Shown: positions 33,357-51,899 of the stretch, piece after piece
How positions within the stretch are numbered: position 1 is the stretch's first letter
How the letters are laid out: the number at the start of each line of letters is the position of its first letter
Assembly (NCBI RefSeq): GCF_000482705.1
Contig: NZ_KI519474.1
Span: forward strand, 1-64,000
DNA: 64,000 bases
Direction: 5' to 3'
Origin: Glycomyces arizonensis DSM 44726
GTDB taxonomy: Bacteria; Actinomycetota; Actinomycetes; Mycobacteriales; Micromonosporaceae
Notes under the pieces: model-generated
The model's database searches: none
The model's input: only the letters and a program-made list of their open reading frames with translations
Told to the model about the DNA's origin: nothing
Position numbers and translations under genes: made by a program

Positions 33357-34376
33357 TCAGCGCGTGACGGGCATGATCGCGGCCGGGTAGCGCTCGCCGG
33401 AGACCCGCTCCGGCCCGAAGGCCGCGTCCAGGTCGGCGAGCTGCTGCACGGTCAGGGCGACGTCGGCCGCGCCGAGGTTCTGCGCGAGGTGGTCGAGCGA
33501 GCGCATGCCCGGAATTGGGACGATGTCCGACCCCTGCGCCAGCACCCACGCCAGCGCCACCTGTGCGAGCGTCGCGTTCAGGGACGCGGCGATGTCGCGG
33601 ATTCGTTCCAGGAGCGGAAGGTTGGCCTCCAGGTTGCCGCCGGAGAACCGCGGGTTGGAGCGCCTGAAGTCGCCTTCGCCGAGTGCGGCCGCGCTGCTCA
33701 CCGCTCCCGTGAGGAATCCGCGGCCCAGCGGCGAGTAGGCGACCGTGGCCACGCCGCGCTCGCGGGCGACGGCGAGGACGCCGTCGTCGATGAGATTGCG
33801 AGTCCACAGTGAATATTCGCTCTGCAGTGCCGCCACCGGGTGCACGGCGCAAGCCCGGCGCAGCTGGTCCGCGCTCACCTCGCTCAGTCCGATGTGGCGG
33901 ACCTTGCCCTCCTTGACGAGCTCGGCCATCGCGCCCACGGTCTCCTCGACCGGGGTGGTGCCGTCGAGCCGGTGCGCGTAATAGAGGTCGATCACGTCCA
34001 CGCCGAGGCGGCGCAGCGAGGCCTCGCAGGCGCTGCGGGCGTACTCCGGCGAGCTGTCGTGCCAGCGGCGCCCTCCGGCGGTGTGGCGGATGGCGAACTT
34101 GGTGGCGATGACGGCGTCCTCGCGGCGGCCCTTGACGGCCCGGCCCACGAGTTCCTCGTTGTGGCCCCTGCCGTACATGTCGGCGGTGTCAAGGAGAGTG
34201 ACACCCGAGTCGAGGGCCGTGTTGATGAGGCCGATGGACGCGTCGTCGTCGGCCGCGCCGTAGTAGTCACCGCTCATCGCCATGCAGCCCAGCCCGATCG
34301 CCCCGACCAGAGGGCCATCGGTGCCGACGCGGCGGTGCGGGGCGGTCAGGAACGGCGGCTGCGGTTGTTCGTTCAT
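33357..34376 (-). CDS. Aldo/keto reductase
   Basis: 339 residues. [20 protein letters not shown] carries the catalytic Asp and Tyr; the Lys is in [10 protein letters not shown] and the His in [10 protein letters not shown]. This is the AKR13/YakC group of NADPH-dependent reductases that act on aldehydes and methylglyoxal-like compounds. The promoter region upstream (34377-34543) is full of AT-rich palindromes, so it is probably tightly regulated. Confidence 0.88.
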
Positions 34377-34400
34377 GCGTTCTCCTCATGATAGCAGGTA

Positions 34401-34543
34401 TCTTATAAGATATAAGATATGTTATATAGGCTATAACATATACGCGACGGCTCATCTCATGGCATCGAGTATGTTATAGCCTATAATTTATAAGTTATGT
34501 GTAACGGCAGATTCCTCGCGGCAGCACGGCGTTATAAGTTATA
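34401..34543. repeat. AT-rich palindrome cluster upstream of the aldo/keto reductase
   Basis: Within 145 bp lie TCTTATAAGA (34401-34410), an inverted repeat with 10-bp arms around TAGGC (34417-34441), TTATAGCCTATAA (34474-34486) and two TTATAAGTTAT units (34489-34499 and 34532-34542). The stretch is far more AT-rich than its surroundings. TATAGGCTATA/TATAGCCTATA is also the core of the large palindrome at 58060-58126. Probably operators for a regulator encoded elsewhere. Confidence 0.55.
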
Positions 34544-34605
34544 GAAACGGTTTCCTTGCAGTAACCGCGCGCGGCGTTCACCTCGCCGTATCCGTCTCGC
34601 CGTGT

Positions 34606-35454
34606 TCACCTCGCGGTGGTGACGAATTCGGAGAAGCTCGCCTCTTGCAGCTTCAGCTGCGCGTGGATGTCCCCGCCGAGCCCGTAGAAGCCGATCGCGC
34701 CGCCGTAGTTCTGCTGGTAGCTCATCCACAGCAGCACGATGTTGACGATCCGCTCGGGTCCCGGCGCGCCCGGTGCGGGGAACGGGTTCGGCAGCTTCGC
34801 GTGGTACTGCGCGTTCCCGCGCCGGTCGGTCATGAACACGTTCGGGATCCCGAGCGGGCCGGGCCGGTGCGGGCCCATCGGCGCGGGGGCGAGGTCGTAG
34901 GTGCGCAGCGACATCACCGTGTACATGCTCTGCGGGATCAGGCCGGTGAACTCGAAGGCGAACTCGGCCTCGTGCCCGGCGCCGGCGAGCGAGACGTCGA
35001 GCCCGCCCTCGGCCTGCACCCACTGGCCGAGGGTGATCGGCTCGTCGACGCGCCGCCCGTCCTCGGGCCGCAGGTCGGGGATCGGCACCCGGTGGAACGG
35101 GTAGCTCGGCCGCTCGACCTCGTGCGCGTCCGGGCGCTGCTCGGGCGCGAACAGCATCGGGTAGTTGTTGACCGGGAGCGGCAGCGGCAGCGTGTGCAGG
35201 ACGGTGTCGCTGTCGCGCTGGCCGAGCCGCTCGGGCAGCTCGCGGACGATCGTGTAAGGCACGTTCCGCCCGTGCGGCGGCACCTCGCTCTTGGAGGAGA
35301 CGATCGCCCGCCCCCAGCTGGTGCGCACGCCGTCCGGCGAGGGCCGGTTGACCATGCCGATGACGATGAAGTCGCCGTTGCCGTCCATGACCTCGCTGGG
35401 CGGATAGGTGGGGCCCTGCGTCGTCAGGCTCAGCTCGTAACTCTGCTTCCGCAT
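34606..35454 (-). CDS. Unknown protein of the ACP-ligase cluster
   Basis: 282 residues, no signal or membrane segment. It has a mostly beta-looking sequence (FIVIGMVNRPSPDGVRTSWG; AEFAFEFTGLIPQSMYTVMS) and a C-terminal segment VNIVLLWMSYQQNYGGAIGF. Family not recognised. It starts two bases after the stop of the gene upstream and is the last gene of the leftward series. Could be a tailoring enzyme or a binding protein for the product. Confidence 0.7.
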   Translation of the reverse strand: MRKQSYELSLTTQGPTYPPSEVMDGNGDFIVIGMVNRPSPDGVRTSWGRAIVSSKSEVPPHGRNVPYTIVRELPERLGQRDSDTVLHTLPLPLPVNNYPMLFAPEQRPDAHEVERPSYPFHRVPIPDLRPEDGRRVDEPITLGQWVQAEGGLDVSLAGAGHEAEFAFEFTGLIPQSMYTVMSLRTYDLAPAPMGPHRPGPLGIPNVFMTDRRGNAQYHAKLPNPFPAPGAPGPERIVNIVLLWMSYQQNYGGAIGFYGLGGDIHAQLKLQEASFSEFVTTAR

Positions 35455-35456
35455 GG

Positions 35457-36083
35457 TCAGGACCCGATGCGGGCGTAGGTCTCCAGGAACAGGCCCGCGT
35501 CGCCGCCGATGTCGGTGACGATGAAGTTCTCCCTGGCCTGCACGAGGATCGCCTCGTAGGCGGGGGTCCGGTACACGGCATTGTGGACTTCGGGTTCGCA
35601 GGAGAACCCGGCCACGAACAGCACGCCCGGGTCGGCGCCGAGCAGCGAGTGGTAGGCCAGGAAGACCTCGGAGGCGTCGGAGGCGCGCACGATCTCGAAG
35701 ATGGTGCGCTCGCGCCACGCGCGGTAGTCCTCGAACACCGGCGGCCTCACCTCGACGCGCCGCAGTTGGAGGTACGGGCTGTCGGGGAACGGGGCGTCCG
35801 TCGGCCGGGGCGCCTCGACGAACTCGTGGACCTGGCGCCGGAAGTCGCCCGCCAGTCGCGGCGCGAGCGCTTGCCACTGGGCCGCCCACAGAGGACGCAG
35901 CCCGTCGAGTTCGGCCAGGCCGTTCGCGGCCCGCACTTCGAGCAGGACCGGGCGCTCCAGCGACCGGTAGAGCAGGGCGTCGCCGCCGTGCTCGGCGTTG
36001 ACCTGCTCCCAGGCCTTGGCGGTCTGGTCGACGGCGTCGGGCTGGACGGGGAGCTGGGTGACCAGGAGTAGCTGAGAGGACAT
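35457..36083 (-). CDS. Unknown protein, probable double dimeric alpha/beta barrel
   Basis: 208 residues from ATG 36083 with GAAAGG upstream. Two similar halves can be seen: LLLVTQLPVQPDAVDQTAKA through LEVRAANGL (first ABM-like unit) and LQLRRVEVRPPVFEDYRAW through LFVAGFSCEP (second). Such ferredoxin-fold units (ABM, EthD, NIPSNAP) often form small monooxygenases or cyclases in natural product pathways. The assignment is from pattern only. Confidence 0.6.
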   Translation of the reverse strand: MSSQLLLVTQLPVQPDAVDQTAKAWEQVNAEHGGDALLYRSLERPVLLEVRAANGLAELDGLRPLWAAQWQALAPRLAGDFRRQVHEFVEAPRPTDAPFPDSPYLQLRRVEVRPPVFEDYRAWRERTIFEIVRASDASEVFLAYHSLLGADPGVLFVAGFSCEPEVHNAVYRTPAYEAILVQARENFIVTDIGGDAGLFLETYARIGS

Positions 36084-36185
36084 GGTGGTGCCTTTCTTCG
36101 AAGGGGGACGACTGAGCGGTGATGAGGGCGCGCCGCAGACCCGCCGGACTGCGGCGCAAGGCAACGTGAACGGCGGCGGCCGGGT

Positions 36186-36500
36186 CTAGGGGCTTGTGGG
36201 AAATTGCACCGACGCGTTGGCGGACTGCCGGAAGGCGTGGATGCGCACCTCCCGCCACACGCCGCCGCTGCGGAACGGATCCGCCTCGATCCACCGTTCG
36301 GCGGCGTCTCGGTCGGCGACGTCGATGATGAACAGGCTCCCCAGGCCGCGCTCGCCGTCGTCGGACAGCAGCGGCCCGCAGACCAGCGGCCTGGGGGAGG
36401 CGGTGCGCAGGCGGGCCGAGTGCTCGGCCCCCAACTTGGCGCGGCGCTCGGCCGCGTCGTCGCCGTCGAGGCAGTGGAGGGCGAACAGCACCGGCCTCAC
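36186..36500 (-). CDS. YciI-related protein
   Basis: 104 residues from a GTG at 36500 that overlaps the stop of the AfsA-like gene (GTGA). VLFALHCLDGDDAAERRAK, HSARL and LFIIDVADRDAAERWIEADPF are typical of the YciI family, a dimeric alpha/beta barrel with a His-Asp pair. Some members are hydrolytic or dehalogenating enzymes, but here it likely assists the pathway chemistry. Confidence 0.75.
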   Translation of the reverse strand: MRPVLFALHCLDGDDAAERRAKLGAEHSARLRTASPRPLVCGPLLSDDGERGLGSLFIIDVADRDAAERWIEADPFRSGGVWREVRIHAFRQSANASVQFPTSP

Positions 36501-37276
36501 GCCCCCACCGCGGGGGCGACCGGCTCCAGCGCCGTCGCCTCCCGCAGCGTCTGACGGGCGGCCATGACCTCCTGCTTGGCCGCGAACACCTCCGGGATCA
36601 CGCGGATCTCCGCCTCGAAGCGGGCGGCGACGCGCCCGGCCTGGTGGATCTCCACAGTGCAGCCGATGACGTGGCCCACCGGCCCCTCGTCGTGGCGGAC
36701 CAGCCGGTACTCCAGGTGCGCCGGGAGCGGGAAGACGAAGTTCAGGAACATCGAGTTGACGTGGGCGATGACGAACCGGGTGGCCGGCTCGGCGGCGATC
36801 AGGAACCGCTCGGTGACGGCCGTCCACGTCTGCCGTGCCGCCTCCAGCAGCGTCACGGCCGGGATGTGGAGGCCGGTGAGGTGGTCTTCGAGGACCTCGA
36901 CGCGCTCGTCGAGCACCAGCGCGGCCCGGTACCGGTCGGCGCCCGCCTGCTCGATATCTCCGATGAGGACGTTCTTGTCGTGGGCCTTGTGGGTCACTGC
37001 GCGTCCCACCGGCTCCGGAGCGCGCCCCTGCGCGGCGAGCACGCAGCGGCCCTCGTCGGCCAGGCGGTTGAGCTCGGCGATCTGCTCGCCGGTGAGGCCT
37101 TGGCCGACGGTGATCCGCGGCGGCCCCTCGTCGTGCTCGCCGTGCTCACCGTGCAGCGACTTGAGCAGTGCGGAGACGCCGATGGTGCCCGGCTGTGCGA
37201 GGAACGCCTCGAACCGGTCGCCGACGACCATGACCGGCCGGTCCTGCGCGGTTTTGTCCACAGTGGCGGTGCTCAT
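36497..37276 (-). CDS. AfsA-like double-hotdog protein
   Basis: 259 residues. Two AfsA-type hotdog units can be made out. The first (about 92-155) has THKAHDKNVLIGD, a run of strands, and VTLLEAARQ with Glu145; the second (about 165-255) has FVFPLPAHLEYRLV and VARFEAEIRVIPEV. AfsA/ScbA enzymes join a beta-ketoacyl-ACP to dihydroxyacetone phosphate in gamma-butyrolactone signal synthesis; relatives act in other small-molecule clusters. Here it is coupled (ATGA) to a stand-alone ACP gene, so its acyl donor may be that ACP. Exact reaction unknown. Confidence 0.75.
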   Translation of the reverse strand: MSTATVDKTAQDRPVMVVGDRFEAFLAQPGTIGVSALLKSLHGEHGEHDEGPPRITVGQGLTGEQIAELNRLADEGRCVLAAQGRAPEPVGRAVTHKAHDKNVLIGDIEQAGADRYRAALVLDERVEVLEDHLTGLHIPAVTLLEAARQTWTAVTERFLIAAEPATRFVIAHVNSMFLNFVFPLPAHLEYRLVRHDEGPVGHVIGCTVEIHQAGRVAARFEAEIRVIPEVFAAKQEVMAARQTLREATALEPVAPAVGA

Positions 37277-37560
37277 GCGCGCACCTCCGCTTCGCCGGAG
37301 GCCTTGGCGTAGGCGTCGGCGAGCGCGCCGACCGTGCGGACGTCGGCGATCACCAGCTCGCCGTCGCCGAACGGGTCGACGCCGAGTTCGAGTTCGAGCT
37401 GGATGAGCAGGCGGGCGAGCAGCAGCGAATTGAGCCCGACGGCGTTCAGCGCGTCGGCCCCGGTGATCTCGCCGTGCTCGGTCCCCGCCTCGTCGAGCAG
37501 GTCGGTGATGTAGTTGCACACGGTGGTCAGGATCTCGAGATTATCCAAATTGTCTAGCAT
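37273..37560 (-). CDS. Stand-alone acyl carrier protein
   Basis: 95 residues. The four-helix ACP pattern is clear, with the phosphopantetheine Ser in GLNSLLL (Ser45) and LEVDPF-like helix III region (ELGVDPFGDGELVIADVRTVG). Coupled to the AfsA-like gene downstream (ATGA) and overlapping the SDR stop upstream. It is not the fatty-acid-synthesis ACP by context; it should be loaded by the ligase at 38288 after activation by the transferase at 39771. Confidence 0.9.
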   Translation of the reverse strand: MLDNLDNLEILTTVCNYITDLLDEAGTEHGEITGADALNAVGLNSLLLARLLIQLELELGVDPFGDGELVIADVRTVGALADAYAKASGEAEVRA

Positions 37561-38291
37561 GTGATTCCTCCGTCGACGACGATGGTCTGGCCGGTGATGA
37601 ACGAGGCGCCGGACGAGATGACGAACAGGACGGTGTCCGCGATCTCCTCGATGCCCGCGAGGCGCCCCAGCGGGGTGCGCCGCCTGATGCGCTCGCGGTT
37701 CTCCGCGGTCACGCCGGCGGTCATGCCGCTGTCGAAGAAGCCCGGGATCACCGAGTTGACGCGGATGTTCAGCGGCCCCAGCTCGCGCGCGAGGCTGCGG
37801 CTGAAGCCGTCGAGCCCGGCCTTGGCGGCCGAGTAGACCGCCACGCCCCGGTAGCCGCGGATGGCGTTGATCGAAGAGACGTTCACGATCTGCCCACTGC
37901 GCCGGACGCTCATGACCTTCGCGCACGCCTGCGTCAGCGCGATGGGCGCCGCGAGGTTCTGCGCGATGAGCGCGTCCAGGCGCCCGTCCGGGACGGTGAG
38001 GAACAGCTCCTGGTCGGTCAGGACGGCGGCGTTGTTGACCAGGAGGTCGATCCGGCCGAAGCGGCGCGTCGCCGCGGCCGCGTACGCGCGCAGCCCCGCC
38101 CGGTCGCCCAGATCGACCGGCGCCCACAGGAAGTCCTCGGGGCGCTCCGCCGCGGTCTGCTCGGTGAACTCACTGGGCTTCCGGCTGAACGTGGCCACCT
38201 TCCAGCCGTCGCCGAGCAGCCGCTCCACCAGGAGCCGCCCGAGCCCGCGGCTGCCGCCGCTGACCACGGCCACGCGTCCGGCGGCGCTCAC
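37554..38291 (-). CDS. FabG-like short-chain reductase
   Basis: 245 residues from a GTG at 38291 overlapping the ligase stop (GTGA). SGGSRGLGRLL is the cofactor motif, LVNNAAVL follows, the catalytic residues are Ser in NVSSINA and YSAAK, and the C-terminus has SSGASFITGQTIVVDGG as in 3-oxoacyl-ACP reductases. In the cluster it would reduce a keto group of an ACP-bound intermediate. Confidence 0.88.
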   Translation of the reverse strand: MSAAGRVAVVSGGSRGLGRLLVERLLGDGWKVATFSRKPSEFTEQTAAERPEDFLWAPVDLGDRAGLRAYAAAATRRFGRIDLLVNNAAVLTDQELFLTVPDGRLDALIAQNLAAPIALTQACAKVMSVRRSGQIVNVSSINAIRGYRGVAVYSAAKAGLDGFSRSLARELGPLNIRVNSVIPGFFDSGMTAGVTAENRERIRRRTPLGRLAGIEEIADTVLFVISSGASFITGQTIVVDGGITC

Positions 38292-39637
38292 GACGCACTC
38301 CGGATCTTCTTGAAGCGGTCCGAGTGCTGCCGCGCGGTGGAGACCTCCACGACCGCTGGGACCTTGAACGCCTCCAGGCGCCGGGAGCAGTGGGCGCGCA
38401 CGCGCCGCTGCACCGAGCGGTGGTCCTCGGCCACGTCCGGCCCGAGCAGCACCGTGGCCTTGACGACCATCCCGGTCACATGGCTCGGATGACCGCTCAC
38501 GGTGGCCTCGGCGATGCCCGGGACCTCCAGGACCGCGCTCTCGACCTCGCTGGGGTAGACCTTCTCGCCGCCGACGTTGATGATCTCGGAGCGGCGGCCG
38601 AGGATCCTCAGCCATTCGCCGTCGGTCTCGACCACGTCCTGGGTGTTGAAGAAGCCGTCGGCGTCGAACGGCGCCTCGGCGTTGAGGTAGCCGAGCATCG
38701 CCATGTCCGAGCGGATCCACAGGATGTCGTCGATGATCTTGTGCTCGAACCCGGCGTCGCCCAGCTTGACCCACAGCGTGTCGTCGCCGCGGGACTTGGT
38801 CGGCAGGATGCCGAGCTCGGACAGGCCGTACGTCTGCTTGAGCCGCGCGCCGGGGAGGTCGCGGGCCAGCCGGGTGAGGGTCCGGATCGGCATCGGCTCG
38901 GTCCCGTAGGTGACCAGCCGCAGCGAGGAGCAGTCGAACCGTTCGAGCACGCCGGAGATGAGGACCATGTTGAGGAAGGTCGGCGTCGTGGGCAGCACCT
39001 CGACGCGGTGGCGCTCGACGGCGGCGAAGACGGTCTCGGGGCTGCGGTCGGCGACGGTGACCACGGTGCCGCCCTGGACGAGCGTGTGCAGGAGCGTGTT
39101 GATGCCGCCGATGTGGTCCAGGCTCAGGAAGGACAGGATGCGGTTGGCGCGGCCGCCCGCGGTGTACCGGTCGAGGGCCTTCTGGAAGTCGAGGACGGAG
39201 GCCTTGCTGCGGCCGGTGGTGCCGGAACTGAAGAGCACCAGGCCGGGGCGGTCGGCGTCGCGCAGTTCGCGGTAGAGCGGATGCGCCGCCTTCGTTCCGG
39301 TGCGCACGACGTCGCCGGGGCCGGTCTCGTCGGCGGTGACGGCGATCTCGACCTCGGCCACCTCGAAGAACTCGGCGCGCTTGGCGGCCGGGAGGGCACT
39401 GAGCGGCACGGCCACCACGCGGCGCTCGATGAGCGCGAGCAGGCCGGCGCACAGCTGCGGCGAGTAGGCCCCTTCGAGGGCGACGACGCGGCCGGGGTCG
39501 ATGTGGTGCTCGTCGAGGAACACGCGCCAGTCGGCGACCATGTCGACGAGCTGCCGGTAGGTGCAGGTGCGGCCGTGGAACACGACGGCCTCGCCGTCGC
39601 CGTGCTTCTCCAACTGCTCGATGATGGTCATGCTCAT
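38288..39637 (-). CDS. AMP-forming acyl/aryl acid ligase
   Basis: 449 residues, GGGAGG before the ATG. ANL-superfamily motifs: P-loop SSGTTGRSKA (about 137-146), TYGLSELG, GFFNTQDVVETDGEWLRILG, INVGGEKVYPSEVE and the C-terminal catalytic Lys in DRFKKIR. It is short for the family (most are 500-550), with a compact N-terminal half. It should adenylate a free acid and pass it to CoA or, by context, to the stand-alone ACP. First core gene of the tightly overlapping series. Confidence 0.88.
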   Translation of the reverse strand: MSMTIIEQLEKHGDGEAVVFHGRTCTYRQLVDMVADWRVFLDEHHIDPGRVVALEGAYSPQLCAGLLALIERRVVAVPLSALPAAKRAEFFEVAEVEIAVTADETGPGDVVRTGTKAAHPLYRELRDADRPGLVLFSSGTTGRSKASVLDFQKALDRYTAGGRANRILSFLSLDHIGGINTLLHTLVQGGTVVTVADRSPETVFAAVERHRVEVLPTTPTFLNMVLISGVLERFDCSSLRLVTYGTEPMPIRTLTRLARDLPGARLKQTYGLSELGILPTKSRGDDTLWVKLGDAGFEHKIIDDILWIRSDMAMLGYLNAEAPFDADGFFNTQDVVETDGEWLRILGRRSEIINVGGEKVYPSEVESAVLEVPGIAEATVSGHPSHVTGMVVKATVLLGPDVAEDHRSVQRRVRAHCSRRLEAFKVPAVVEVSTARQHSDRFKKIRSAS

Positions 39638-39770
39638 GCGGCCTCCCGGGAAAGGACTTCAGGGGTGTTCCTGCTGCGACGCTCTACCGGCCCCGAGGAA
39701 TGCACTTCCGTTGCGATGGAATGTGATGTCCGGACCGTTCGAGTGCCGTCTGTGAGAAGCCTAAGCACCG

Positions 39771-40496
39771 CTATTGTGGATCACAAGCTCCACTTTCAGG
39801 CAGCGCATATGGTGTATCCGCAAGGGCATACCCGTTCATGGGCACAGAAGTTGACTGTCCGGCGATCACCGAGGTGACCATGATGCGGCCGTCGGTGTGC
39901 CAACGGCCTTGGAAGACGGGAGACAGCGCTTTGCCGGTTTCATGACAGGGCACTCGTACATCCACTGTAAACTTTCCATCGTGTTCCGGCCCGATGCGCG
40001 CGTCGTGGAATCCGAGCCAGCGGCCGGTCAGCGGGAACCACGCCTTGTAGAGCGATTCCTTGGCGCTGAAGATCAGCGTCTCCCAGTGGACGCCCGCGCC
40101 CAGGCGCCGCACGTGCGCCCGCTCCTCGGGCAGCAGCACCGTCTCCACCAGTTCGGGCGGGAGCGGGCGGTGCTCCTCGGCGTCGATGCCGATGCCCTGG
40201 ATCCGGCCCCGGCGGGCCGCCGCGGCGGCCCGGTACCCGCGGCAATGGGTGATGCTGCCGACGATGCCGTCCGGCCACAGCGGTTCGCCATGCGCCCCGG
40301 AGGGGATGGCGATGTCCGGCACGCCGAGCCGCGCGAGCGCCAGGCGGCCGCAGCGCCGCCCGGTGGTGAACTCCAGGCGGCGCGCGTCCACCGCGCCGCG
40401 GAGGCGGTCCTCCTCCTCGGGAAAGAGGACCGCCTCGGCGGTGTCGTGCGCGGTCCAGGCGGTGGCGACGGCGTCAGGCAGGAGACGCTCGATCAC
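39771..40496 (-). CDS. 4'-phosphopantetheinyl transferase, Sfp type
   Basis: 241 residues, the Sfp size. Metal and substrate motifs are GIDAE (near 103-107) and FSAKESLYKAWFPL (about 143-156), with SITHCRGY upstream. It transfers the phosphopantetheine arm from CoA to carrier proteins, here most simply the ACP at 37273. It lies 133 bp upstream of the ligase gene and 21 bp downstream of the exporter gene. Confidence 0.9.
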   Translation of the reverse strand: MIERLLPDAVATAWTAHDTAEAVLFPEEEDRLRGAVDARRLEFTTGRRCGRLALARLGVPDIAIPSGAHGEPLWPDGIVGSITHCRGYRAAAAARRGRIQGIGIDAEEHRPLPPELVETVLLPEERAHVRRLGAGVHWETLIFSAKESLYKAWFPLTGRWLGFHDARIGPEHDGKFTVDVRVPCHETGKALSPVFQGRWHTDGRIMVTSVIAGQSTSVPMNGYALADTPYALPESGACDPQ

Positions 40497-40517
40497 CTCG
40501 GCCCTCGCCGCACCCGC

Positions 40518-41516
40518 TCAGCCCTTGCCCGCGGGCGCCGCCGGAGCGGCGCTGTCGGCCTCCGCTGACGAGGCCATGGCGGGTTCGGGCGCGGCCGCGA
40601 CCGGCGCGGGGCGGAATCTCGCCAGCATCCGGCGGTGCGTCCCGGTGGCGACCAGGACGCCCGACATCACCACGATGCCGGCGATGACCTGGAGCCAGGT
40701 GACCTCCTGGCCGAGCGCGAAGGAGCCCAGCACGGTGAACACCGGGACCAGGTGGAAGAAGACCGCGGTGTCGGCGACGCCGATCAGCCTGATGCCGCGG
40801 TTCCAGAAGATGTAGGCCAGCACGGAGCCGAGCGCGCCCATGAAGAACAGCGCGCCGTACACCTGCCACGGCAGGCCCGCGAGCACGCTCGGCGTCGGCT
40901 GCGGGGCGACCATGGCCGCGACTATCCACATCGGGATGAAGCCCATGACCGTGGTCACGCCGGTGGTGATGATGGGCGTGCTGTCCTTGACGTAGCGCTT
41001 CTGCAGCACCGCGTACAGCGCGAAGCAGATGTTGGCGATGAGGAAGAAGATGTCGCCGACGTTGGGCGCCTCCAGGCGCTGCACCGATCCGGTCAGGATC
41101 AGCGCGGCGACGCCGATGAAGCTGATGGTGGTGCCCACCTTGTGGTTGCCGCTGACCTTCTCTTTGAACAGGACCGCGGCGACGATCGCGGTCACCAGCG
41201 GGTTGGTGGCCTGGATGAGGGCGCCGTTGGTCGCCGAGGTGAAGTGGACGCCCAGGAAGAAGAACGTGTTGAAGCCGAAGACGCCCAGCAGGGCGACCAC
41301 GGCGAAGATCCCGAGGTTCCGCTTGGCCGCGTCGACGACCTTGGGGAACTGCGGGGCCAGGATGACCGCGATGATGACCGCGGCGAGTGTGAAGCGCAGG
41401 GCCGCCCCGGCGGCCGGGGTGAGGTAGCCGACCGTGTATTTGGCCAGGTTGAACGTGATGCCCCAGAAGAAGGCGGAGAGTGTGAGCAGCGGATAGACGC
41501 TGCGCGCGGTGCTCAT
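40518..41516 (-). CDS. EamA/DMT-family exporter
   Basis: 332 residues with ten predicted membrane helices in two EamA repeats (LSAFFWGITFNLAKYTVGYL near the N-terminus; GALGSVLAYIFWNRGIRLIG in the second). A Pro/Ala-rich hydrophilic tail of about 30 residues ends the protein. DMT exporters move amino acids and small metabolites out of the cell; here it is the probable exit route for the cluster product. It is divergent from the ArsR-like regulator with palindromic operators between. Confidence 0.88.
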   Translation of the reverse strand: MSTARSVYPLLTLSAFFWGITFNLAKYTVGYLTPAAGAALRFTLAAVIIAVILAPQFPKVVDAAKRNLGIFAVVALLGVFGFNTFFFLGVHFTSATNGALIQATNPLVTAIVAAVLFKEKVSGNHKVGTTISFIGVAALILTGSVQRLEAPNVGDIFFLIANICFALYAVLQKRYVKDSTPIITTGVTTVMGFIPMWIVAAMVAPQPTPSVLAGLPWQVYGALFFMGALGSVLAYIFWNRGIRLIGVADTAVFFHLVPVFTVLGSFALGQEVTWLQVIAGIVVMSGVLVATGTHRRMLARFRPAPVAAAPEPAMASSAEADSAAPAAPAGKG

Positions 41517-41625
41517 CGCATCGCTCCGGCGGCGTTGCGGCCGGTGCGGTGTTCAGGCGCTGGTGGACAGGGGTGCGAGCTGGTGCGGGCCATGGGACGA
41601 CTCCTTCACGGTAGTACCAATGAAG

Positions 41626-41679
41626 TCGAACTAGTTCGATTACAGTCGAACATACACTGTAGTACGATTGAATTCGAAC
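41626..41679. promoter_or_regulatory. Operator region of the ACP-ligase cluster
   Basis: TCGAACTAGTTCGA (41626-41639) is a perfect 14-bp palindrome. TCGAAC recurs at 41646-41651 and 41674-41679 (within ATTCGAAC). The sites lie between the divergent exporter and ArsR-like genes. TCGAACATAC (41646-41655) is repeated exactly at 46319-46328. Confidence 0.6.
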
Positions 41680-41714
41680 CACTTATAAGTGACATGAATC
41701 ACAGGAGGTAGATC

Positions 41715-42065
41715 ATGCCGGCGCAGGCCGCAACCGAATCCGAGACCGGCTACCTTCCCGAGCCGGCCAGGGCCGAGATCCGCCTGGAGAAGGTGCTGAG
41801 CGCGCTCAGCGACCCCCTGCGGCTCAACATCGTCCGGGCCTACCTGCTCGACGCGGGGGGCGTCGAGCGATCGTGCAGCTGGTTCGCGATCGACCGGCCG
41901 AAGTCCACGCGCACGCACCACTGGAAGGTGCTGCGGGAATCGGGGATCATGCGGCAGCGCATGGTCGGCCTGGAGAAGCGCAACACCGTGCGCGAAGAGG
42001 ACCTGGACGCCAGGTTCCCCGGCCTGCTGGACCTCGTCCGAGCCTGGGAGCCCGAGGCCGAATAA
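41715..42065 (+). CDS. ArsR-like winged-helix regulator
   Basis: 116 residues. ATG 41715 has AGGAGG upstream. LEKVLSALSDPLRLNIVRAY and STRTHHWKVLRESGIMRQR are the winged helix of the ArsR group, but the usual metal-binding Cys pairs are absent, so it more likely responds to a small molecule or redox state. Its position opposite the exporter gene and beside TCGAAC palindromes makes it the probable local regulator of the cluster. The stretch 42066-42251 after it shows no gene. Confidence 0.82.
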   Translation: MPAQAATESETGYLPEPARAEIRLEKVLSALSDPLRLNIVRAYLLDAGGVERSCSWFAIDRPKSTRTHHWKVLRESGIMRQRMVGLEKRNTVREEDLDARFPGLLDLVRAWEPEAE

Positions 42066-42251
42066 CCGGGTGCCGCGCCAGACGGGCGCTGCCCGCCTTC
42101 AGCCGGCGGTCTTACACGCGCGCAGGCGCAGGAGCGGTGCGAACCGCCGCGGACGCCCGTCCCGCCGAGCGCTGCGACGCCCGCGCCCCGCCGACGGCCA
42201 AGTCCTGCCCGGCATGCACGCCGGGGCGTGCGGAACCGCCGTTCCGTGGTG

Positions 42252-43448
42252 TCAGTTCAGGTTGGCGACGAGGTTGACGTAGTCGCCGAATGCCCGGTCG
42301 ACGTCGGCATGGGTGAGCCCGTAGTCGGCGAGGCTGTACTCGTGCTTGCGGTCGGCCGAGGGCCGCTTCAGGGCCTGCTCGAGGTTGGCCTCGTCCTTCG
42401 GCCCCCACTGCGCCCCGAGCTTGCCGTAGAGCTCGGGCACGTAGGTGTGCGGATCGGCGTTGAGCCGGTGGTAGGGCACGTCGATCACCGAGCCGGGCCG
42501 CAGGTACGGCCGGGCCTCCCGCGCGTGCTCGATGCCGTCGGCGAGCAGGTCCAGGAACCTCCGCCCCAGGGCGTGCCTGTCGATCCTGCGCAGCATCAGC
42601 CCCATGGCCGTCTCGTTGAGCGAGCAGGTCGAGGCGATCACGGTTATGGGGTCGCGGTGGTTCCACACGAACGTCGCGTCGGGGAACACCGTCTGGATCT
42701 CGCGGAGATTGAACGTGTCCATCGGGGACTTCAGTATCCAGCGCTTGCGTTCCCGCCCGTACTGGAGCACCTGCAGCGCCTCCTTGAGATAGGTGTAGTC
42801 GGGCACCTTGTCGTGGGTCTCCAGCCACTTGGCGTAGTGCGGGATCGGCGCGCGCGTGAGGTGGTAGTGGGTGTGCGGGACGATCAGGAACGACTCCTCG
42901 GGCCCGGTCGCCACCATCGGATGCTGGATCGGGAACACCGGCATCAGCTTCTCGAGCATCGACAGGTCCCTGGCCACCTTGGCGATCCGCGCGTCGCGCT
43001 GCTTCGGCGGCAGCTCCAGGTCGATGTTGTACATCTCCCAGGTGAGCGGGCCGCGGTGGCCGGGCGATCCGGCGAGGATCTTGTGCGTGAGCGTGGTCGC
43101 GGTGCGGGGCAGGCCGAGGATGAACACCGGTTTCTCGATCGGCTCGTCGGCGATCGCGGGGTGCTCCGCGCGCAGGCGGCGCACCCGCAGGCGGTTGGTC
43201 AGGCGCATCGCGAACTCGGCCTTGACCCCGACCCAGCCCATGGGCGCCATGCCCTCGACCTCGGTGTAGCACTTGAACGCGAAGCCGAGGTCGTCGACCC
43301 ACTGCCGGTCGTCGTCGAAGGTGAACTCCTGGTCGGCCTCGGCGGCGGAGACCATTTTGGACCAAGTCCTGTCCGGATTGCGGCGAGAGCCGAGTGCGGG
43401 GGCCATGGCGAGGTTCAGGACGGAGGCGAGGGCGGAGACGCGACGCAT
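42252..43448 (-). CDS. Sulfotransferase-family protein
   Basis: 398 residues. The PAPS 5'-phosphosulfate loop is seen as GLPRTATTLTHKIL (112-125), and a 3'-phosphate-binding region as FVWNHRDPITVIAS. This is the bacterial Sulfotransfer_3 group often found with modified lipids and natural products. It would transfer sulfate to a hydroxyl group. It lies on the same strand as the SDR and HAD genes further upstream but 232 bp away, with a hairpin between. Confidence 0.82.
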   Translation of the reverse strand: MRRVSALASVLNLAMAPALGSRRNPDRTWSKMVSAAEADQEFTFDDDRQWVDDLGFAFKCYTEVEGMAPMGWVGVKAEFAMRLTNRLRVRRLRAEHPAIADEPIEKPVFILGLPRTATTLTHKILAGSPGHRGPLTWEMYNIDLELPPKQRDARIAKVARDLSMLEKLMPVFPIQHPMVATGPEESFLIVPHTHYHLTRAPIPHYAKWLETHDKVPDYTYLKEALQVLQYGRERKRWILKSPMDTFNLREIQTVFPDATFVWNHRDPITVIASTCSLNETAMGLMLRRIDRHALGRRFLDLLADGIEHAREARPYLRPGSVIDVPYHRLNADPHTYVPELYGKLGAQWGPKDEANLEQALKRPSADRKHEYSLADYGLTHADVDRAFGDYVNLVANLN

Positions 43449-43579
43449 GAGGGTGCATCCTCTCTAGAGGGTTGGCGTCACTCTACCGCCGGTCGCCTGT
43501 TACGGGAACGAGTTGTTCGCGGTATCCGCGGGCCGCGTGAGCGCCGCGATCGACGCCGCCTTCGATCCCCGCCGACCGG

Positions 43580-43634
43580 TTCCAGGGCTCATCGCGACGC
43601 TGGAACGACCACCGTGCCGCGATGAGCCCTGGAA
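43580..43634 (-). terminator. 17-bp inverted repeat between SDR and sulfotransferase genes
   Basis: TTCCAGGGCTCATCGCG (43580-43596) pairs perfectly with 43618-43634 around a 21-base loop, 47 bp after the SDR stop on the minus strand. It may end the LuxR-HAD-SDR transcript, or mark a mobile or regulatory element because the loop is long. Confidence 0.5.
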
Positions 43635-43680
43635 TCCGCCCGTGGAGGACGGGTCCCTTGTCATGCCGCTGAGGCGCGCC

Positions 43681-44418
43681 TCAGCGCCACAGCCACGCGT
43701 CGAGTTCGATCGACGACGGGTGGGCCCGGCCGGAGCTGTTCAGGACGGCCATTGTGGCGTCCACGACGTCCTCGGCGCTGAGCATCCGATCCCGCTGCTC
43801 GGCGCTGTAGTCGATGTGCGGGCGCATGTTGTCCCTGAACGCCGTGTCCACCTTGTCCAGCACGATGCTCGAGACCTTCACGCCCCACGGGTTCGCCTCC
43901 TCGATCAGGCACTTGGTCAGGCCCTCGACCCCGAACTTCGAGACCGCGTAGGCGAGCATCGCGCCGGGAGGGGCGCCGCGCTTGCCCCAGATCGACGACA
44001 TGTTGACGATCGTGCCCCGCCCCGCCGCCTTCATGTGCGGCAGCACCGCCTGCGCCATCAGGAAGTACCCGGTCAGGTTGGTCCGCAGCGTCTCCTCCCA
44101 CACCGCGACGTCGGTGTCGAGGATGCCCCCGTGGTAGGCCACGCCCGCCACGTTGAGCAGGTTGTCGACGCCCCCGAACCGGTCGACGGCCGCCGCGACG
44201 GCCGCCGTCACCGCCTCGGCGTCGCCCACGTCGTGCGCGGCGGTGAGCACCTGCGCGCCCGTCCACCCCGCGTCCGCCACGGCCTTCTCCAGGCCCTGCC
44301 CGTCGTTGGAGTGGAGGACGAGCGCGTGGCCCGCCGTGGCCAGCCGCCGGGCCAGCGCGAGTCCGATGCCGCGGTCGGCGCCGGTGATCAGCGACACCGG
44401 GCGATGGTCTGTACTCAT
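43681..44418 (-). CDS. Short-chain dehydrogenase/reductase
   Basis: 245 residues. ITGADRGIGLALA is the cofactor motif, NVAGVAYHGG and NMSSIWGKRG follow, and the catalytic motif is YAVSK. Third gene of the LuxR-HAD-SDR series. Substrate unknown; in an AfsA-type pathway a reductase and a phosphatase would be needed after condensation, which this and the HAD gene could supply. Confidence 0.85.
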   Translation of the reverse strand: MSTDHRPVSLITGADRGIGLALARRLATAGHALVLHSNDGQGLEKAVADAGWTGAQVLTAAHDVGDAEAVTAAVAAAVDRFGGVDNLLNVAGVAYHGGILDTDVAVWEETLRTNLTGYFLMAQAVLPHMKAAGRGTIVNMSSIWGKRGAPPGAMLAYAVSKFGVEGLTKCLIEEANPWGVKVSSIVLDKVDTAFRDNMRPHIDYSAEQRDRMLSAEDVVDATMAVLNSSGRAHPSSIELDAWLWR

Positions 44419-44500
44419 GTGCTTCTCCTTCTTCCGTGCGCCCGGCCGACCGTCGGCCGGGTCGCTGCGCCGCGCCCCGCTCGGGGCGCGGACGGTGTGG

Positions 44501-45205
44501 TCATTCGGCGGCGAGCACGGCGGGCAGCGGGCCCGCCTCGGCCGGGAGGTGCGCCCAGCCGTGCCGCCGGGCGTGCTCGGCGAGCACCGGGTCGGCGCCG
44601 ACCACGCACGGCCTGCCGACCTGCCGGAGCATGTCGAGGTCGCTCGCGTGGTCCCCGTAGCAGCAGCACTCCTCGGGGTCCAGCCCGAGCGCGGCGATGG
44701 TCTCCCGCACCGCCGCCGCCTTCGCCTCGCCGATCATGGGGCGCACGACGTCGCCGGTGAGCCGCCCGTCGGGGCCCACCACCGGCTCGGTGCCGATCGC
44801 GAGGTCGGCGCCCAGCTCCTCGGCCAGCGGCTCCAGGCAGGCGCGGAACGACCCGGAGACGAAGACCGTGGTGTCGCCCGCCAGCCGGTGCCTCCCGATC
44901 GCCTCCAATGTGGCGCTGACGTAGGCGTCGGGTCTGGCCCGGTACGCCGCGTACCAGCGGCGGCCCTCGGCCAGCAGCTCCTCATAGGAGGTCCCGGCGA
45001 AGCCGCGGTAGTACGTGCGGTTGACCTCGGAGCGGTGGACCCCCGAGGCGGCCATCGCGTGCAGCCTCCCGGCGGCCTCCTCGTAGGTCGGCCCCTCGCC
45101 GCCGGGGCGTTCGAGCCAGTGCCGCAGGAAGTCGAACATGCTCTTGGCGCTGATGACGGTCTCGTCGACGTCGAAGAACGCCGCCCTTCGGATGCTGTCG
45201 GTCAT
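44501..45205 (-). CDS. HAD-superfamily phosphatase, subfamily IB (SerB-like)
   Basis: 234 residues. The nucleophile motif is FFDVDETVI (Asp about 11-13), SGSF is motif II, and CCYGDHASDLDMLR is motif IV with the metal-binding aspartates. HAD-IB enzymes remove phosphate from phosphoserine or similar small molecules. Its start overlaps the LuxR stop (ATGA at 45202-45205). Confidence 0.88.
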   Translation of the reverse strand: MTDSIRRAAFFDVDETVISAKSMFDFLRHWLERPGGEGPTYEEAAGRLHAMAASGVHRSEVNRTYYRGFAGTSYEELLAEGRRWYAAYRARPDAYVSATLEAIGRHRLAGDTTVFVSGSFRACLEPLAEELGADLAIGTEPVVGPDGRLTGDVVRPMIGEAKAAAVRETIAALGLDPEECCCYGDHASDLDMLRQVGRPCVVGADPVLAEHARRHGWAHLPAEAGPLPAVLAAE

Positions 45206-45969
45206 CGCGTTCCCCTGTCGTTGTCGTCGTGTGCGGCGCCCGATCGCCCGAGCGCCACGGCCGGGCGGCCCGTCGCGCCGCCGCCCGCGTGGGCGGGCAC
45301 GTTCGTGGAGAGGCCCTCGCGCAGGATCCGCGTCACCGCGAAAGTCCTATTAGGTGAGTCGAGCTTGGCGAGGATGTTGCCCACCAGCCGCTTGGCCCCA
45401 TGTGGAGAGATCGCCAGGCGCCGGGCGATCTGCTTGTTGCTCATGCCCTCCACCAAGAGCGGTAGCACCTCCCGCTCACGCGCGGTCAGTCGCGGCGGCC
45501 GCCTCGCGTCACTGCCGGGACAGGCGGTCAGCAGCCGCTGCGCCAGGCTCGGGGGCATCGGCACGTCGCCGATGGCGATGCGCCGCATGCACTCGCGCAC
45601 CGTGTGCGGGGTCAGCGCCCCGGCGTCGAGGATCCCGGCGCTCGGCACGCGGGGGACCCGGGACAGGTCGACGCGGGCGGGGTCGGCGACCAGCAGCACG
45701 GCCCGCAGGCCCGCCGCGTCGAGCGATGCCGCGGTGGCCGGTTCGAGTTCGTCGAGGGCGAGGAAGACCAGGACGGGCCCGGCGCGGACCTCCAGGTCGG
45801 CCGCGCTCCGTATCGCGGACTCGGGGGCGGGGTGCGAGTCCAGCGTCCTGATATGGTCTACTATGGAGAGTGTTCTTTTCAGTTGCGACCGGAGCAGGCC
45901 GTCGCCGACGCCGATGACGACGTCGAAGAGCGCTTCGGTCCCCACCTGTACGGCTCCTCCATCCAGCAC
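45202..45969 (-). CDS. LuxR-type regulator with a receiver-like N-terminus
   Basis: 255 residues from a GTG at 45969 with AAAGGAG upstream. The C-terminal LuxR HTH is LTAREREVLPLLVEGMSNKQ through NILAKL (about 170-225). The N-terminal 130 residues resemble a receiver fold (DVVIGVGDGLLRSQLKRTL; VLVFLALDELEP), but the usual phospho-acceptor and acidic pocket are not clear, so it may be an atypical, non-phosphorylated receiver. It is coupled to the HAD gene and likely controls this block. Confidence 0.82.
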   Translation of the reverse strand: MLDGGAVQVGTEALFDVVIGVGDGLLRSQLKRTLSIVDHIRTLDSHPAPESAIRSAADLEVRAGPVLVFLALDELEPATAASLDAAGLRAVLLVADPARVDLSRVPRVPSAGILDAGALTPHTVRECMRRIAIGDVPMPPSLAQRLLTACPGSDARRPPRLTAREREVLPLLVEGMSNKQIARRLAISPHGAKRLVGNILAKLDSPNRTFAVTRILREGLSTNVPAHAGGGATGRPAVALGRSGAAHDDNDRGTR

Positions 45970-50188: not shown

Positions 50189-51616
50189 TCAGAGGCTCCA
50201 CTGCTGGTTGGCGCCGCCCCAGCAGTCGTACTGCTGGAGTCTGGTGCCGTTGGCGGTCGAGGAGTCGATGACGTCGAGGCACTTGCCGGAGTGGCGGGCG
50301 ACGAGTTCGACGTGGCCGCCTCCGGCGTCGCGCACCTCCCACTGCTGGTTGGTCTGCCCGTTGCACGGCCACTGGATGGCCCTGGCGCTGTTCGATGTCG
50401 AGGCGCCGTCGATGTCGAGGCACTTGCCCGAGGCCTGGGAGATGATCTGGTAGTAGCCGCCGCCCGCGTCCTGGAGCATCCATTGCTGGTTGGCGCCGCC
50501 GTGGCAGTCGTACTGGATGATCTCGGCCCCGTCGGCGGTGGAGCCGTTGACCACGTCCACGCACTTGCCGGAGTTCCGGTTCACGATGTCGGTGACCTGC
50601 CCGCCGCCCCCGGCCCCTTCGACGACGCCGGTGGCGGTGTCGATGGTGATCTGCGAGTACCAGTCCATGGCCAGGGTGTTGTTCGAGGGGAAGCGGAGCG
50701 GCAGCCACACGTACGTCGACTCGTTCGGCGTGCCGCCGGTCGCCCCGGCCCACCGGTCACCCATGTACATATAGGACGTCTGCTGGGAGCCGGCGACCTC
50801 CAGCACGTACGTCGACTGCGAGTTGTAGGTCGTGCCGTTCCCGAAGTTCTGCCACCCGCTCCAGCCGGTGGGGAAGCTCGTGGTGGTCGCGTACTGCGCC
50901 TGGTTCGGGTTCCAGCCGGTCGCCCCGGAGGTGACCAGGAAGTACACGCCGTTGCGCTTGAAGATCGCCGGGGCCTCGCGGTGGTCGCCGTCGAAGGAGT
51001 ACAGCAGCTCCTCGACGCCGAGGTAGTCGTCGGTGAGGCGGTAGATGTGCAGGTCGTAGTTCTCATTCGCCGCCGAGATCAGATAGCCGGTGCCGTCGTC
51101 GTCGACGAAGACCGTCTGGTCCCGCGACATGTGGCCCAGCGGCCGGAAGGACCCCTGGTAGGTGTAATCGCCGTCGATGGTGTCCGAGACGGCCACGGCC
51201 GCTTCGGCGTCGCCGTAGTCCGAGCCGTTCTCCTTGTGCGCCCACAGCACGTAGTGGTCGTACTCGGCGTTGTAGATCACCTTGGGCCGCTCCAGGTTCG
51301 CCGGGTCCAGGGCCGGGTCGGAGTCCTTGGTGAGGATGTCGTTGACGTGGGTCCAGTGGACCAGGTCGCTCGAGCGGTACATCGAGACGGCCTCGAAGAG
51401 GCTGCCGCCGTCGACGCGGTGCTCGCCGAGCATGTAGTAGTAGCCGCCCTCTTTGATGACGCCGCCGCCGTGGGCGTGCATGACGCTGCCGTCGGTGGTG
51501 ATGATCTGGGTGCCGTTGGTGAACGTCTGCTCCGCCGCCTGGGCGGGGGAGGCGCCCAGCGCGGCCGCGAGCAGTGCCGCGGCGCCGATCGCGGCGGCCT
51601 TCCATCGCATTCGCAT
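50189..51616 (-). CDS. Secreted GH43 galactanase-like enzyme with ricin-type lectin domain
   Basis: 475 residues from ATG 51616 with AAAGGA upstream. A Sec signal (MRMRWKAAAIGAAALLAAAL, cleavage near SPAQA) is followed by a five-bladed GH43 domain (about 27-330) with MHAHGGGVIKEGGYYYMLGE. That opening is the GH43_24 type (exo-beta-1,3-galactanase), which lacks the general-base Asp found in most GH43 enzymes. The C-terminal 130 residues are a beta-trefoil with three NQQW repeats (CBM13/ricin-B). Probably degrades arabinogalactan side chains outside the cell. Confidence 0.87.
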   Translation of the reverse strand: MRMRWKAAAIGAAALLAAALGASPAQAAEQTFTNGTQIITTDGSVMHAHGGGVIKEGGYYYMLGEHRVDGGSLFEAVSMYRSSDLVHWTHVNDILTKDSDPALDPANLERPKVIYNAEYDHYVLWAHKENGSDYGDAEAAVAVSDTIDGDYTYQGSFRPLGHMSRDQTVFVDDDGTGYLISAANENYDLHIYRLTDDYLGVEELLYSFDGDHREAPAIFKRNGVYFLVTSGATGWNPNQAQYATTTSFPTGWSGWQNFGNGTTYNSQSTYVLEVAGSQQTSYMYMGDRWAGATGGTPNESTYVWLPLRFPSNNTLAMDWYSQITIDTATGVVEGAGGGGQVTDIVNRNSGKCVDVVNGSTADGAEIIQYDCHGGANQQWMLQDAGGGYYQIISQASGKCLDIDGASTSNSARAIQWPCNGQTNQQWEVRDAGGGHVELVARHSGKCLDVIDSSTANGTRLQQYDCWGGANQQWSL

Positions 51617-51899
51617 GATGGTCCTTTCGCTCGTCACCCGTCGTCCGGTTCGGCGCCGCTCGGGCCGGGCAGGGGCCGCCGGCCGTCCGGGGATCGGACG
51701 CGGCGCCCGCGTTCGCGTGGTCGCCGGGGGTGAACATCTCCAGCATTCCATATATTTAAATGCTTGTAAATACCGTCAGAGGAAGCGGGCGGGCCGTTGA
51801 CCGGGACCGGTGTCATTCAGTTGTCTAAAGAGGAATCAGTGTTCCGTGAGATGGAGCGCATCTCATTGGGAGCGTGGGCAATGCCGACCGACGGGTAGG

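What the first reader, a model, noticed from the sequence alone, without database searches (positions are those of the whole stretch)
34606..41516. Compact ligase-ACP-AfsA cluster with its own PPTase and exporter: candidate undescribed small-molecule pathway
Six of the genes from 34606 to 39637 overlap or nearly touch (GTGA/ATGA at 38288, 37273, 36497; 7-bp overlap at 37554; 2-bp gap at 35455). They encode an acid ligase, a FabG-like SDR, a stand-alone ACP, an AfsA-like double hotdog, a YciI protein, a double alpha/beta-barrel protein and an unknown 282-residue protein. A PPTase and a DMT exporter precede them. There is no ketosynthase or condensation domain. The logic seems to be: activate a free acid, load it on an ACP, reduce it, and let the AfsA-like enzyme release or condense it. 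Known AfsA pathways draw on primary-metabolism beta-ketoacyl donors rather than on a dedicated ligase and ACP, so this is a variant I cannot match to a described system.
Basis: partly seen in the sequence, partly recalled or inferred. Interest (0 to 1): 0.8.

Follow-up and report, generated by a model that had tools for sequence, protein, structure and literature searches.

The report
Mupirocin-type primer feeding a butenolide synthase
A soil actinomycete, probably a Glycomyces, carries a gene set that seems to build a small diffusible lactone by joining a starter-making trio known from the antibiotic mupirocin to a hormone-type (AfsA) enzyme; distant relatives use other starter makers at the same place, and one marine relative needs its version to kill competing bacteria.

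Summary
Three things change the reading. (1) The cluster is larger, about 33357-45969. (2) The "ligase, SDR, ACP" trio is homologous to the MupQ/MupS/MacpD starter-unit cassette of mupirocin and thiomarinol (SDR vs MupS E 2e-58; ligase vs the thiomarinol ligase 38%, 320 bits). (3) The 208-aa/AfsA/282-aa core with HAD and reductase is shared with the Ruegeria pomeroyi cluster required for diffusible killing (PMC7426152). Relatives have a ketoacyl synthase III or a thiolase instead of the cassette, never both (20, 10, 13 and none found in 14 of 57), also inside the genus. I infer that the cassette primes an ACP with a short acyl chain which the AfsA-like enzyme joins to DHAP, and that HAD removes the phosphate. 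Substrate, product and activity are untested. New variant of a known kind.

The parts
   Evidence: PF00248 258.7 bits; 67-71% homologue directly after the 282-aa gene in L016 and L019; AKR within 9 kb in 20 of 57 loci, window included
34606..35454 (-). P282: 282-aa protein, homologue of Ruegeria SPOA0341 (my mapping by gene order); Cu/Zn-SOD-like beta barrel in the model, function unknown
35457..36083 (-). P208: double alpha/beta-barrel protein (ABM/anthrone-oxidase-like fold), homologue of Ruegeria SPOA0343 (my mapping by gene order)
36186..36500 (-). YciI-family protein
   Evidence: PF03795 57.1 bits; within 9 kb in 20 of 20 ligase-type loci and 0 of 37 others
36497..37276 (-). single-domain AfsA-family enzyme, presumed acyl-ACP : DHAP condensing enzyme
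   Evidence: PF03756 55.6 bits; E145, R148, Q149 and H137 shared with 6 of 6 ScbA C-terminal domains, D131 and H132 with 5 of 6; only AfsA match in the genome
37273..37560 (-). stand-alone ACP of the priming cassette (GLNSL attachment motif)
   Evidence: PF00550 22.4 bits; 42-44% to the ACPs of the B. stagnalis and Bradyrhizobium cassettes, but no BLAST match to the thiomarinol ACP
37554..38291 (-). MupS-type SDR of the priming cassette
   Evidence: best PDB hit MupS 4yxf 2e-58, next hit 4.9e-42; C-terminal GGITC, GGFTC in MupS and the thiomarinol SDR
38288..39637 (-). MupQ-type adenylating ligase of the priming cassette
   Evidence: 38.2% / 320 bits to the thiomarinol ligase, 53% to cassette ligases of B. 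stagnalis and Bradyrhizobium; best own-genome paralogue 43 bits
39771..40496 (-). 4'-phosphopantetheinyl transferase
   Evidence: PF17837 86.3 and PF01648 62.7 bits; PPTase in 10 of 20 ligase-type loci
40518..41516 (-). DMT-family exporter
   Evidence: EamA 139.9 bits; 52-57% homologues in L016, L018, L019, L028, L029
41715..42065 (+). divergent ArsR-like HTH regulator (membership likely by position only)
   Evidence: HTH_20 23.9 bits, below the Pfam cut-off 27; ArsR-type matches below cut-off
42252..43448 (-). sulfotransferase-like gene inside the span; membership doubtful
   Evidence: PF13469 122.2 bits; found in 1 of 57 loci, the window itself
43681..44418 (-). second SDR, possible tailoring enzyme
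   Evidence: 46% homologues beside the clusters in L028 and L029; matches in 10 of 57 loci, window included; SDRs are common, so weak
44501..45205 (-). HAD-IB phosphatase, core partner of AfsA
   Evidence: TIGR01490 and TIGR01488 above cut-off; HAD within 9 kb of AfsA in 55 of 57 loci, window included; 2 other matches in the whole genome
45202..45969 (-). LuxR-type regulator, 4-bp overlap with HAD
   Evidence: GerE 50.1 bits; 63-65% homologue beside HAD in G. niveus and G. lechevalierae

Best explanation
This is one biosynthetic cluster (about 33357-45969) for a small butenolide-type molecule. A ligase-SDR-ACP trio of the MupQ/MupS/MacpD kind attaches a short dicarboxylic acyl group (by analogy malonyl-CoA) to the phosphopantetheinylated ACP and reduces its far end. 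The acyl-ACP is handed to the single-domain AfsA-like enzyme, which esterifies dihydroxyacetone phosphate (DHAP) and closes a butenolide phosphate; the HAD-IB enzyme removes the phosphate; the 208-aa, 282-aa, YciI and aldo-keto reductase proteins tailor the ring; the DMT carrier exports it. Shown: gene content, homology of each step's enzyme, order conservation, mutually exclusive acyl-supply modules in the loci examined. Inferred: that the ACP serves AfsA, that DHAP is the partner, the chain (3-oxopropionyl or 3-hydroxypropionyl), the product and its role (antagonism or signalling, by analogy with Ruegeria).
For: Cassette homology: SDR vs MupS E 2e-58, above the next hits, FabG-type enzymes; ligase 38%/320 bits and SDR 46%/188 bits to thiomarinol pTML1 proteins, 51-53% to cassettes heading PKS operons in B. 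stagnalis and Bradyrhizobium, same order ligase-SDR-ACP; a quick SDR tree groups the 20 cluster SDRs with these three against own-genome paralogues (SH-aLRT 91). Coupling to AfsA: in a row in 18 of 20; ligase-type AfsAs form one clade 100/100 with one extra row; one ACP-AfsA fusion noticed among 96 homologues (P0033). Supply logic: ligase 20, KASIII 10, thiolase 13, none found 14 of 57, no overlaps; within the genus 3 of 22 genomes have the ligase and 5 an AfsA-HAD-KASIII locus, with no ligase in those five and no KASIII in the fetched stretch of the others. Phosphate step: HAD in 55 of 57. Role: transposon hits in the homologous R. pomeroyi cluster abolish diffusible killing (PMC7426152, abstract and passages).
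Against: No product or enzyme assay. HAD lies 7.9 kb from AfsA (centre to centre), behind a sulfotransferase, a second SDR and an opposite-strand regulator. The canonical AfsA donor is a beta-ketoacyl thioester (recalled), whereas MupS-type reduction ends at a hydroxyacyl chain, so the hand-over needs a halt at the aldehyde or a changed AfsA reaction. The window ACP (95 aa) lacks the C-terminal tail of the cassette ACPs (111-120 aa) and gave no BLAST match to the thiomarinol ACP. P208 and P282 are near only 7 of 20 ligase-type loci. No recognisable N-terminal hotdog of ScbA. 14 of 57 AfsA loci have no donor gene found.
Confidence: 0.65

Rival explanations
1. Two neighbouring operons that only happen to touch: a mupirocin-type starter cassette making a hydroxyacyl-ACP for something else (for instance a polyketide enzyme elsewhere in the genome), and an AfsA-HAD signalling unit drawing its beta-ketoacyl donor from primary metabolism as in Streptomyces.
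For: In B. stagnalis, Bradyrhizobium and pTML1 the cassette heads PKS operons; 14 of 57 AfsA loci have no dedicated donor gene found; a type I PKS-like frame (judged by eye) lies next to the cluster in L019, and its family f29 also in L016, L018, L026.
Against: Ligase-SDR-ACP-AfsA in a row in 18 of 20 loci, overlapping genes in the window, one AfsA clade for the ligase type, an ACP-AfsA fusion, and no KASIII or thiolase match in any of the 20 cassette loci.
Confidence: 0.15
2. A different chemistry: the AfsA-like enzyme only transfers the hydroxyacyl group from the ACP to an alcohol (an ester synthase), and no butenolide forms; HAD, P208 and YciI act on that ester.
For: MupQ/MupS/MacpD end at 3-hydroxypropionyl-ACP and thiomarinol is primed from 4-hydroxybutanoyl (passages of PMC10098928); the protein has one AfsA domain only and scores 23.9 bits against a 200-bit ScbA/BarX cut-off.
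Against: The residues shared with the ScbA C-terminal domain are kept and the HAD phosphatase is near-universal, as a phosphorylated intermediate would need; KASIII and thiolase, the modules found instead, make beta-ketoacyl thioesters.
Confidence: 0.15

Closest known systems
MupQ/MupS/MacpD and TmlQ/TmlS/TacpD starter-unit cassettes (mupirocin, thiomarinol)
   Same: ligase-SDR-ACP in that order (read on pTML1); clear homology of ligase and SDR; C-terminal GG[IF]TC of the SDR
   Different: followed by AfsA instead of a ketosynthase; ACP without the C-terminal tail and without a BLAST match to the thiomarinol ACP; substrate unknown
Ruegeria pomeroyi DSS-3 'GBL' killing cluster, SPOA0339-0344 region (PMC7426152)
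   Same: P208-AfsA-P282 triad, HAD, AKR, an exporter
   Different: Ruegeria has no acyl-supply module found, a tautomerase and a CMD protein instead of YciI, LysR regulators, an MFS exporter beside the cluster (a DMT gene lies farther off)
A-factor / ScbA-type gamma-butyrolactone synthases of Streptomyces
   Same: AfsA domain and LLEAARQ motif region
   Different: one domain instead of two, dedicated acyl-ACP supply, no TetR-type receptor gene among the cluster genes scanned
Methylenomycin-furan pathway MmfL/MmfH/MmfP (recalled, no call)
   Same: AfsA-type enzyme with an HAD phosphatase
   Different: extra cassette and P208/P282; no counterpart of MmfH recognised, but this was not tested with an MmfH sequence
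Gladiofungin-type AfsA domains at the end of trans-AT PKSs (PMC7756420, PMC7756379: search listings and starts of abstracts only)
   Same: an AfsA-type unit in chain release from an ACP-bound intermediate
   Different: there the donor is a PKS chain; here a stand-alone ACP with no ketosynthase

Membership tests
ScbA/AfsA gamma-butyrolactone synthase | PF03756 AfsA domain | tested here: met
   55.6 bits, cut-off 24
ScbA/AfsA gamma-butyrolactone synthase | two AfsA domains in tandem; NCBIfam ScbA/BarX cut-off | tested here: not met
   one domain; 23.9 bits vs cut-off 200; no recognisable N-terminal ScbA hotdog in the alignment; a degenerate hotdog was not tested by structure
ScbA/AfsA gamma-butyrolactone synthase | conserved LLEAARQ region of the C-terminal domain | tested here: met
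   E145, R148, Q149 aligned with all 6 ScbA-type proteins in the alignment; that these residues are catalytic is recalled
ScbA/AfsA gamma-butyrolactone synthase | condenses a beta-ketoacyl thioester with DHAP | not testable with these tools
   needs enzyme assay
MupQ/MupS/MacpD starter cassette | ligase, SDR and ACP genes contiguous in that order | tested here: met
   window and pTML1
MupQ/MupS/MacpD starter cassette | SDR closest to MupS rather than FabG; ligase closest to the cassette ligase | tested here: met
   MupS 201 bits vs best FabG 147; ligase 320 bits to the pTML1 ligase vs 43 bits to the best own-genome paralogue; SDR tree SH-aLRT 91; MupQ itself was not available
MupQ/MupS/MacpD starter cassette | ACP of the MacpD/TacpD kind with C-terminal extension | tested here: not met
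   95 aa vs 111, 120 and 120 aa in the three cassettes read; BLAST match to two of the three ACPs, none to the pTML1 one; so a variant, not an identical cassette
MupQ/MupS/MacpD starter cassette | turns malonyl-CoA (or the 4HB precursor) into a hydroxyacyl-ACP | not testable with these tools
   activity described in PMC10098928 passages; not tested here
Ruegeria-type P208-AfsA-P282-HAD cluster | P208, AfsA, P282 and HAD close together | tested here: met
   window order AfsA-YciI-P208-P282, HAD 7.9 kb away; L055
Ruegeria-type P208-AfsA-P282-HAD cluster | tautomerase and CMD genes | tested here: not met
   no BLAST match within 9 kb in the window
Ruegeria-type P208-AfsA-P282-HAD cluster | needed for diffusible killing | not testable with these tools
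   shown for R. pomeroyi only

The most novel reading that the evidence does not exclude
The cassette stops at, or passes on, the aldehyde stage, giving 3-oxopropionyl-ACP (malonate-semialdehyde-ACP), the smallest possible beta-oxoacyl donor. AfsA then makes 2-formyl-3-hydroxymethyl-butenolide or its furan tautomer, matched in relatives by 2-acetyl analogues from thiolase- or KASIII-made acetoacetyl thioesters: a cross-phylum family of very small reactive butenolides used as diffusible weapons, with the strongly conserved 282-aa protein handling the shared head group and perhaps immunity.
Probability: 0.22. Interest if true: 0.8.

Novelty: new variant of a known kind. Interest (0 to 1): 0.62.

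Why it matters
It joins three things known apart: a starter-unit cassette of clinical antibiotics, the AfsA hormone-type enzyme, and a conserved 208-aa/282-aa/HAD core required for bacterial killing in a marine model. The mutually exclusive supply modules suggest that the donor is a short beta-oxoacyl thioester, which makes the unknown chemistry of the Ruegeria-type killing cluster directly testable, and they give a genome-mining handle on a product class found in Actinomycetota and Pseudomonadota (AfsA-HAD alone also in one Myxococcota locus, L052).

Tried and rejected

Dropped or biased rows: the 57-locus census is the window, L010-L054, L055, L056, L062 and L074-L081. L010-L054 were picked by an AfsA alignment rich in ligase-type members; 9 of the 10 KASIII loci were found through the 282-aa protein, so its presence there is by construction; the KASIII query came from L056 and the thiolase query from L032, so distant donors may be missed, and some loci without a donor are on short contigs (for example L036, L041, L046). 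Presence was called by BLAST E<=1e-3 within 9 kb, the ligase at 40% identity or more; 'in a row' means order and strand by position, with the ligase centre within 2.6 kb of AfsA, and 'YciI next' means within 1 kb downstream. The AfsA tree left out L053 (short) and L074 (weak). In the genus, the AfsA loci of G004, G011, G017 and the second ones of G007 and G019 were not fetched.


Full report
Observation. The window lies in a 5.05-Mb, 49-contig genome. Two same-genus genomes carry the cluster on contigs of the same lengths as named Glycomyces niveus and G. lechevalierae contigs, so the host is inferred to be a Glycomyces. Two corrections: the AfsA-like protein has one AfsA domain (96-225), and the cluster does not end at 34606 and 41516.

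Boundaries. Comparing 57 loci, the window included (composition and omissions are under Tried and rejected), an HAD phosphatase lies within 9 kb of AfsA in 55 of 57, P208 in 39, P282 in 37, an aldo-keto reductase in 20. In the window these are HAD 44501-45205 and AKR 33357-34376. The own genome has only two other HAD matches at E<=0.001, so a chance match within 9 kb would be expected in roughly 1% of cases (2 x 18 kb / 5.05 Mb, my arithmetic, for this genome). The LuxR gene overlapping HAD also recurs in the two other cassette-bearing Glycomyces. The sulfotransferase gene is in no other locus and may be a passenger.

Order. LIG-SDR-ACP-AfsA stand in a row on one strand in 18 of 20 ligase-type loci, all 18 from Actinomycetota; in the two proteobacterial loci P208 stands between ACP and AfsA. 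YciI follows within 1 kb in 14, P208-P282 follow that in 5, AKR is also there in 3. Searching 295 Streptomyces genomes with the 282-aa profile alone found 10 carriers; all 10 have P208, HAD and an AfsA-like frame nearby, one of the AfsA matches weak (28.7 bits). The 282-aa protein is rare (3 of 296 genomes in the class, own genome included), so this linkage is hard to put down to chance.

The trio is a known cassette. The SDR's best match among solved structures is MupS of mupirocin biosynthesis (2e-58; next best 4.9e-42). On the thiomarinol plasmid pTML1 the ligase, SDR and ACP genes stand in the same order before a polyketide synthase; the window's ligase is 38% identical (320 bits) and the SDR 46% (188 bits), while the ACPs gave no BLAST match. 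Closer cassettes (ligase 53%, SDR 51-52%, ACP 42-44%) head operons with a large PKS-type gene in Burkholderia stagnalis and Bradyrhizobium. In a quick tree the 20 cluster SDRs and the three plasmid cassette SDRs form one group against own-genome SDRs (SH-aLRT 91; several long branches). All 20 end in GG[IY]TC. Passages of PMC10098928 state that MupQ, MupS and MacpD make the 3-hydroxypropionate starter from malonyl-CoA and that thiomarinol uses a 4-hydroxybutanoyl starter. The primary paper (Walker 2020) is not held; that the intermediate is a CoA/ACP bis-thioester is recalled. The names TmlQ/TmlS/TacpD for the pTML1 genes are recalled too.

The AfsA partner. Aligned with six ScbA-type proteins, the window protein matches their C-terminal domain (DH..H......LLEAARQ), with E145, R148 and Q149 kept in all six and the DH pair in five, and shows no recognisable N-terminal hotdog. 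Among 28 aligned relatives H96, K97, D131, H132, H137, E145, R148 and Q149 are invariant. One of 96 homologues, noticed by its length and name, is an ACP-AfsA fusion (P0033; five of the 96 were read in full there); it is a single metagenomic protein and could be an assembly or frame artefact.

Supply modules. Counting donors near AfsA: ligase cassette 20, KASIII 10, thiolase 13, none found 14 of 57, no locus with two. The MupS-type SDR (>=50%) and YciI occur in 20 of 20 ligase-type loci and 0 of 37 others; a tautomerase is found in 18 of the 23 KASIII and thiolase loci. AfsA phylogeny follows the donor: ligase-type rows form a clade of 21 at 100/100 with one donorless row (L020), KASIII rows are one side of a branch (91/81), and the fewest changes are 5 against a shuffled mean of 29 (shared ancestry and near-copies contribute). 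Inside the genus, 3 of 22 genomes have the ligase and 5 have an AfsA-HAD-KASIII locus; those five lack the ligase, and the fetched cassette loci of the other three show no KASIII. Four of the five also hold the 282-aa protein, in one of them on another contig. The thiolase is acetyl-CoA C-acetyltransferase-like and the KASIII FabH-like. Both kinds make beta-ketoacyl thioesters, so the cassette should supply something equivalent; the cassette intermediate that fits is 3-oxopropionyl-ACP. That last step is inference.

Function by homology. R. pomeroyi DSS-3 carries P208-AfsA-P282-tautomerase-HAD with AKR, CMD and MFS genes. Sharpe et al. 2020 (PMC7426152; abstract and passages seen) report six non-killing mutants with insertions in this cluster; mutants in SPOA0341 (by gene order the 282-aa homologue, my mapping) also lose some immunity, afsA is needed for transcription of most of the cluster, and SPOA0339-0343 make up 1-6% of the proteome. 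They found homologues of all three genes SPOA0341-0343 in 29 of 35 organisms, and say that most carriers of at least two of them are gammaproteobacteria and actinobacteria, so the triad itself is not new; its chemistry was not identified in the passages seen. A Chromobacterium AfsA-HAD pair is quorum-regulated with an efflux pump (PMC12114271, passages).

Verdict. The finding is real, larger than stated, and partly explained: a mupirocin-type priming cassette joined to an AfsA-HAD-P208-P282 butenolide core. I found no description of this combination in the searches listed. Product, substrate and biological role remain open.

Noticed in passing
42252-43448: Sulfotransferase-family gene inside the cluster span, found in none of the other 56 loci; either a window-specific tailoring enzyme or a passenger.
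   Followed up: partly
L019:15102-19244 (family f29 also in L016, L018, L026): A long type I polyketide-synthase-like frame (judged by eye) lies just downstream of the AfsA cluster in L019, with relatives near three other clusters.
   Followed up: no
L028:14348-15415, L019:4068-4922: Alpha/beta hydrolases, and CMD-family proteins elsewhere, recur beside these clusters; together with YciI and tautomerases they recall small enzymes of lactone and aromatic metabolism.
   Followed up: partly
L095, L096: Cassette-headed operons with a large PKS-type gene on plasmids of Burkholderia stagnalis and Bradyrhizobium, a separate use of the same kind of starter cassette.
   Followed up: no
L097:8001-9350: Rhizobium sp. 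T1470 plasmid: relative of the ligase (41%) next to an SDR and a gene annotated as a CmlS-type halogenase, with no AfsA match among the neighbours compared.
   Followed up: no
P0033: 363-aa metagenomic protein that fuses an ACP to an AfsA-like domain.
   Followed up: partly
11186-13231: 681-aa protein with a NACHT domain, a kind often found in signalling or defence; surroundings not examined.
   Followed up: no
50189-51751: GH43-type glycosidase with a ricin-type lectin domain.
   Followed up: no
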